Shown piece after piece: positions 34,415 to 60,699 of a stretch of DNA of 64,000 bases. Source of the stretch: Phoebastria nigripes. Taxonomy: Eukaryota; Chordata; Aves; Procellariiformes; Diomedeidae. The notes under the pieces are model-generated. The model had not been told where the DNA came from and searched no databases. It saw only the letters and a program-made list of their open reading frames with translations. The translations under genes were made by a program, and so were the position numbers. Positions within the stretch are counted from its first letter, which is position 1; every line of letters begins with the position of its first letter. The stretch covers positions 310,001 through 374,000 of the forward strand of contig JAYKAV010000311.1 in assembly GCA_035582835.1 (NCBI GenBank), written 5' to 3'.

Positions 34415-34536
34415 TTAACTGTCTTCGTGGCAAATAGCTGCCCTAAGGAGCTCTTGAGTTTCTTCTGTTTGTTGACGGACTTGCTCAAGGAGTTTGGCCA
34501 TTTGGCTTTTTCTGAACGCTAATGAAAATTCTGGAT
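34415..34536 (-). CDS. Vac8-like exon 14: C-terminal tail and stop
   Basis: Read leftwards after the acceptor CCTTTTCAG: DPEFSLAFRKSQMAKLLEQ, VRQQTEETQELLRAAICHED, S, stop TAA. 122 coding nt. It is a short charged helix with no ARM signature, which agrees with a C-terminal helix after the last repeat of Vac8. Confidence 0.9.

Positions 34537-60699: not shown

What the first reader, a model, noticed from the sequence alone, without database searches (positions are those of the whole stretch)
34415..60699. A complete Vac8-like gene in a bird genome
Fourteen exons with matching phases give a 574-residue protein aligned end to end with yeast Vac8 (about 578 residues), from an MG...C...C lipid-anchor start through the ARM repeats to a C-terminal helix. 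Vac8 is usually discussed as a fungal vacuole scaffold, and I know of no named human gene for this product. An animal form would bear on how organelle contact, lysosome inheritance and autophagy scaffolding evolved. No long open frame shows it, because each exon is only about 40 codons.
Basis: partly seen in the sequence, partly recalled or inferred. Interest (0 to 1): 0.9.

Follow-up and report, generated by a model that had tools for sequence, protein, structure and literature searches.

The report
Vertebrate Vac8-like gene, missing from mammals
This bird carries an intact 14-exon gene, seen also in sharks, other fishes, frogs and reptiles but in no mammal record listed here, whose protein is built like Vac8, the yeast protein that ties the vacuole to other structures; it is likely held on a membrane by fatty acids on cysteines, is predicted to act as a docking platform, and has probably been lost by mammals.

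Summary
Fourteen minus-strand exons (60699 to 34415), with 13 of 13 GT-AG introns and matching phases, give 574 residues. It is no bird speciality: orthologues lie in sharks, lungfish, coelacanth, sturgeon, teleosts, amphibians and reptiles, many already named automatically 'vacuolar protein 8-like'. No named row in the three lists of 120 is a mammal. Here it lies between MAP7 and BCLAF1.

Among families compared, yeast Vac8 is nearest: an orthologue profile gives it 288 bits against 106 for ARMC3, which papers call the mammalian Vac8. Vac8 leads both fold searches. Trees join the two at 80 to 93% bootstrap, but tests do not reject joining it to ARMC3. The bird also has ARMC3.

The anchor differs from yeast: Gly2, needed for myristoylation, is absent in 14 of 44 orthologues, while two cysteine pairs around an amphipathic helix are in 44 of 44. 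Predicted: an S-acylated membrane scaffold. Function is untested, and seven literature searches found no study of it.

The parts
60474..60699 (-). exon 1: start codon, CxxC, amphipathic helix, CxC, linker (residues 1-75 and one base)
   Evidence: splice motifs and frame; 97% identical to stork over residues 1-76
57194..57313 (-). exon 2, ARM region
56134..56253 (-). exon 3, ARM region
54880..54999 (-). exon 4, ARM region
48656..48778 (-). exon 5, ARM region; the only exon of this gene listed in the genome-wide Pfam Arm search (33.1 bits)
47502..47584 (-). exon 6, ARM region
46158..46283 (-). exon 7, ARM region; contains one N
45276..45321 (-). exon 8, ARM region (46 bases)
43974..44107 (-). 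exon 9, ARM region
39659..39787 (-). exon 10, ARM region
37824..37938 (-). exon 11, ARM region
36777..36911 (-). exon 12, ARM region
35405..35530 (-). exon 13, ARM region; missed in my first model
   Evidence: tblastn with the stork orthologue, splice sites and frame
34415..34536 (-). exon 14, C-terminal helix and stop codon

Best explanation
The fourteen exons encode a 574-residue armadillo-repeat protein whose closest relative among the families compared here is yeast Vac8, and which is likely a membrane-bound scaffold, predicted to be attached by S-acylated cysteines and to hold partner proteins in its superhelical groove. Shown: the gene is intact, is the only such gene found in this genome, is carried by jawed vertebrates from sharks to birds, and its product aligns end to end with Vac8. 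Inferred: it descends from the same ancestral gene as fungal Vac8. Inferred: its N-terminus (CxxC, amphipathic helix, CxC) is palmitoylated and lies on the cytosolic face of a membrane, probably of the endolysosomal system by analogy with the yeast vacuole; myristoylation, which yeast Vac8 needs for its place on the vacuole, is optional or absent. Inferred: the most conserved part, residues 83-328, binds a conserved vertebrate partner, which need not resemble Nvj1 or Vac17. Inferred: mammals lost the gene, and the empty slot would lie between MAP7 and BCLAF1.
Against: AU tests do not reject a clade of this gene with ARMC3 (p 0.156; 0.164, 0.178, 0.060). Only one fungal sequence was used. The exon-wise search of the genome with yeast Vac8 does not put this locus first (places 12 and 13 of 16 by E-value), as expected for short exons. 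Three arginines that I recall as the Nvj1 site are mostly changed: Arg at 33, 7 and 2 of 47. No localisation, acylation, partner or phenotype is known.
Confidence: 0.6

Rival explanations
1. ARMC3 is the true animal Vac8, as the literature proposes, and this gene is a separate animal ARM family that resembles Vac8 because both kept canonical repeats.
For: Papers report ARMC3 as mammalian Vac8 acting in autophagy during sperm formation (passages). AU tests do not reject Vac8 with ARMC3 (p 0.16; 0.172, 0.183, 0.060). Vac8 is the second-best PDB match of the recalled human ARMC3, 112.7 bits.
Against: Vac8 scores this gene about twice as high as ARMC3, and in one full-length stretch; ARMC3's best PDB match is ARMC4, 115.8 bits.
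Confidence: 0.2
2. The protein is an ARM protein of cilia or the cytosol and is not lipid-anchored; its cysteines serve folding, metal or partner binding.
For: Gly2 is dispensable (14 of 44 lack it); the recalled Nvj1-binding arginines are mostly changed; the related animal protein ARMC4 is a part of ciliary doublets (PDB names) and ARMC3 is tied to cilia and sperm (passage).
Against: Two cysteine pairs that flank an amphipathic helix near basic residues are the usual layout of an S-acylated anchor (general knowledge), and they are in 44 of 44 orthologues.
Confidence: 0.25
3. The gene came into the ancestor of jawed vertebrates from a fungus by horizontal transfer, which would explain why no invertebrate appears in the lists.
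For: No named row of the three lists is an invertebrate, and Vac8 is the best match.
Against: The lists are capped at 120 rows and at about 8000 candidates sharing most words, so invertebrates were hardly sampled; the gene has 13 introns and follows vertebrate descent; the only fungal sequence compared shares about a third of its residues.
Confidence: 0.04

Closest known systems
Vac8 of Saccharomyces cerevisiae (PDB 5xjg, 6kbm, 6kbn, 7ycj)
   Same: ARM solenoid in the same register from end to end; 168 of 527 aligned residues identical to the stork orthologue; best match by sequence and by fold; cysteine cluster at the N-terminus.
   Different: Gly2 not conserved among vertebrate orthologues; a helix of about 33 residues between two cysteine pairs where yeast has one short cluster; recalled Nvj1-binding arginines mostly changed; no long disordered C-terminal tail.
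'vacuolar protein 8-like' of databases, e.g. chicken LOC421690 and Xenopus laevis vacuolar protein 8
   Same: These are the orthologues themselves, found and named by automatic annotation.
   Different: Nothing in kind; the searches named in Tried and rejected found no study of them.
ARMC3
   Same: Animal ARM protein that papers call the mammalian Vac8 (passages).
   Different: Separate gene in this same genome on contig C1848; far weaker and piecemeal match.
ARO of Toxoplasma
   Same: A palmitoylated armadillo protein on an organelle, by the title of a reference seen.
   Different: Not compared by sequence here.

Membership tests
Vac8 family | ARM solenoid collinear with yeast Vac8 over nearly its whole length | tested here: met
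   one stretch of 288 bits; 527 aligned positions; 464-491 residues superposed
Vac8 family | mutual best match against other animal ARM families | tested here: met
   met against the four families compared (ARMC3, ARMC4, beta-catenin, importin alpha); no whole proteome could be searched
Vac8 family | groups with Vac8 in a tree and rivals are rejected | tested here: inconclusive
   grouping 80/86 to 93/97, rivals not rejected, p 0.060 to 0.183
Vac8 family | N-terminal cysteines for palmitoylation | tested here: met
   CxxC and CxC in 44 of 44; acylation itself not testable here
Vac8 family | Gly2 for myristoylation | tested here: inconclusive
   present in this bird, absent in 14 of 44 orthologues
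Yeast-type Vac8 function (Nvj1 tether) | three groove arginines 276, 317, 359 (positions recalled, paper not held) | tested here: not met
   Arg kept in 33, 7 and 2 of 47 orthologues
Yeast-type Vac8 function (Nvj1 tether) | place on vacuole or lysosome, organelle contact, autophagy role | not testable with these tools
   no experimental data found
ARMC3 | best match is ARMC3, or the gene is the bird's ARMC3 | tested here: not met
   106 bits against 288 for Vac8; the bird's ARMC3 lies on contig C1848, 10 of 12 matches
beta-catenin family | best match is beta-catenin or plakoglobin | tested here: not met
   83 bits for beta-catenin; about 56-57 bits for the two in the PDB search

The most novel reading that the evidence does not exclude
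Jawed vertebrates kept the ancestral Vac8 gene between MAP7 and BCLAF1, swapped yeast's myristoyl anchor for a doubly palmitoylated amphipathic helix, and mammals lost it outright, so the mammalian 'Vac8', ARMC3, is a stand-in and not the orthologue.
Probability: 0.45. Interest if true: 0.7.

Novelty: new member of a known kind. Interest (0 to 1): 0.5.

Why it matters
A 2021 review says that counterparts of the Nvj1-Vac8 pair have been identified only in other fungi (passage in PMC7610967), and autophagy papers fill the mammalian gap with ARMC3 (passages). A real vertebrate Vac8 in chicken, Xenopus and fishes would make the evolution of vacuole and lysosome scaffolding testable in ordinary laboratory animals, and a loss in mammals would explain why human and mouse work has not met it. 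The gene itself is already in databases by automatic annotation; what is added here is its range, its absence from the mammal side of the lists, its neighbours, its distance from ARMC3 and its altered anchor.

Tried and rejected
The whole-genome search with yeast Vac8 was uninformative, since exons of 40 codons score too little: the best hit is a long exon on contig C370 that reads to me like SARM1 (recalled), and this gene came 12th and 13th of 16, though with the highest (49%) and third-highest (43%) identity.

The three protein searches list 120 rows each, of 228, 302 and 129 with E below 0.001, so 108, 182 and 9 hits were not seen, and only about 8000 candidates sharing most words were scored each time. 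Absence of mammals and invertebrates is absence from these lists, not proof of loss. The lists did reach teleosts at 42% identity (402 bits). The human MAP7-BCLAF1 neighbourhood is recalled. The arginine triad could not be checked. One ARMC3 source paper was not held; of the others I saw only passages of papers that cite them. Searches for studies of the vertebrate gene or of its loss: 2 papers; 4, 3 listed; 10; 205, 20 listed, none of those with the word Vac8; 1; 2; 1; of the papers that I opened, only the chicken pituitary paper mentions the gene, in a table. A recalled myristoylation consensus fitted 57 of 78 full-length rows that begin MG, a set biased by its own selection, so one search replaced it. 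One search used 44 of the 47 aligned rows (three with unsure starts dropped), and those 47 were my choice out of 167 proteins held. The first protein, PDB and Pfam searches used the 532-residue model without exon 13. In one search one designed ARM chain (5mfm_C, 90 bits) bears the label importin alpha; I did not count it as natural. Families missing from the fold lists are not thereby excluded. A Pfam and PDB look at a plus-strand ORF gave only weak MAP7 hints.

Full report
What is there. On the minus strand between 60699 and 34415 lie fourteen exons that join into one frame of 574 codons and a stop. Thirteen were found by reading frames and splice sites; the stork orthologue pointed to the fourteenth, exon 13 at 35530-35405. 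All 13 introns are GT-AG and every phase fits; the only flaw is one N in exon 7. The window is part of a 2.07-megabase contig of a 1.2-gigabase genome. A search of that genome with the stork protein gives 13 matches, all at this place (20 candidates scored), so no second copy was found at that sensitivity.

Who has it. With the 532-residue first model as query, 228 proteins passed E 0.001, and the named rows among the 120 listed are birds, turtles, crocodilians, tuatara, squamates and amphibians. With the Xenopus protein 302 passed; the 120 listed add axolotl, coelacanth and sturgeon. With the coelacanth protein, in a query lengthened to move the length window, 129 passed; the 120 listed add sharks, rays, a chimaera, lungfish, eels and other teleosts. 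No named row of the three lists is a mammal or an invertebrate, and the five unnamed rows are closest to frogs (three), axolotl (one) and a skate (one). Squamates and frogs at 54-62% identity to the bird are listed, so a mammalian orthologue evolving at an ordinary rate should have shown. I read this as probable loss in mammals. Databases already name many of these 'vacuolar protein 8-like' and others 'uncharacterized protein'.

Is it expressed? Chicken LOC421690, 'Vacuolar protein 8-like', stands in a table of a pituitary transcriptome paper (PMC5148799, one passage seen). The five unnamed orthologues come from contigs of 2,119-2,678 bases that hold 507-586 uninterrupted codons; for a 14-exon gene this fits cDNA (inference). 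The frame conserved from sharks to birds itself argues for function.

Where it sits. Downstream and convergent lies MAP7 on the plus strand (C-terminal exon 28787-28996); upstream lies BCLAF1 on the plus strand, with its first match at 77890-78420 counted on from the window (both found with recalled human sequences). In human, as I recall, MAP7 and BCLAF1 are neighbours in the same order, which marks the slot where relics should be sought.

What the trees say. With all families the orthologues join Vac8 at 80/86. A slower alignment gives 82/87, then 87/91 without importin alpha, and 93/97 with ARMC4 as the only family besides ARMC3 and Vac8. AU tests do not reject joining the gene to ARMC3 (p 0.156; 0.164, 0.178, 0.060), nor Vac8 to ARMC3 (0.16; 0.172, 0.183, 0.060). 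The program warns of long branches. So Vac8 orthology is likely, not settled. The papers that cast ARMC3 as the mammalian Vac8 (passages) should be read with this gene in mind.

How it likely works. Yeast Vac8 is anchored by a myristoylated glycine and three palmitoylated cysteines, and mutants of either kind of site become mostly cytosolic (passages of PMC6899017; cysteines 4, 5 and 7 in PMC6678646). In the vertebrate protein Gly2 is missing in 14 of the 44 rows with sound starts (seven sharks, rays and chimaera, four turtles, one caecilian, two teleosts), with at least four changes on the tree, while a CxxC at the start and a CxC near residue 40 are in 44 of 44. Between them the model has one helix, residues 6-38, whose hydrophobic moment is reached by only 1 to 35 of 1000 shuffles in six species. 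I therefore propose an anchor of S-acylated cysteines flanking an amphipathic helix. In the stork and other orthologues the second pair reads CSCLK, the same five letters as residues 5-9 of yeast Vac8; this may be chance, or the old N-terminus behind a later extension.

The groove. Conservation among the 47 orthologues is highest over residues 83-328 (mean frequency of the commonest residue 72-81% per 41-residue bin) and falls to 55-63% beyond. The arginines that I recall as the Nvj1 site align with stork residues 316, 357 and 400, at the edge of that part and beyond it, and are Arg in 33, 7 and 2 of 47 (the third is Lys in 19). Nvj1 is reported only from fungi (passage). This fits a scaffold that kept its build but changed partners. 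Partner, organelle and function remain untested.

Verdict. A real, intact, conserved and little-noticed gene. It is not new to databases, not restricted to birds, and not shown to act as Vac8 does.

Noticed in passing
28787-28996 (+); also ORF 16927-17259 (+): MAP7 (ensconsin) lies on the plus strand, tail to tail with the Vac8-like gene: its C-terminal exon is 61% identical to the recalled human end, and a coiled-coil exon gives weak MAP7 hints.
   Followed up: partly
L029-L030, 77890 onward counted from the window start (+): BCLAF1 follows upstream of the Vac8-like gene, outside the window, so the order is MAP7, Vac8-like, BCLAF1.
   Followed up: partly
51523-51912 (-), intron 4: An open frame of 129 codons that looks to me like the tail of a CR1-type retrotransposon protein (recalled, not searched).
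   Followed up: no
L025-L028 (contig C1848): The bird's own ARMC3 gene, 10 of 12 exon matches to the recalled human ARMC3.
   Followed up: yes
protein rows P0165 and P0162: A grouper orthologue is named 'ankyrin and armadillo repeat-containing protein', and a monitor lizard one carries an added PF00078 domain and 789 residues; both look like annotation slips.
   Followed up: no
46158-46283 (-), exon 7: A single N inside exon 7 leaves one residue unread in this assembly.
   Followed up: no
60474-60699 (-), exon 1: The second cysteine pair in stork and other orthologues reads CSCLK, as do residues 5-9 of yeast Vac8; in this bird the letters are CFCLK.
   Followed up: partly
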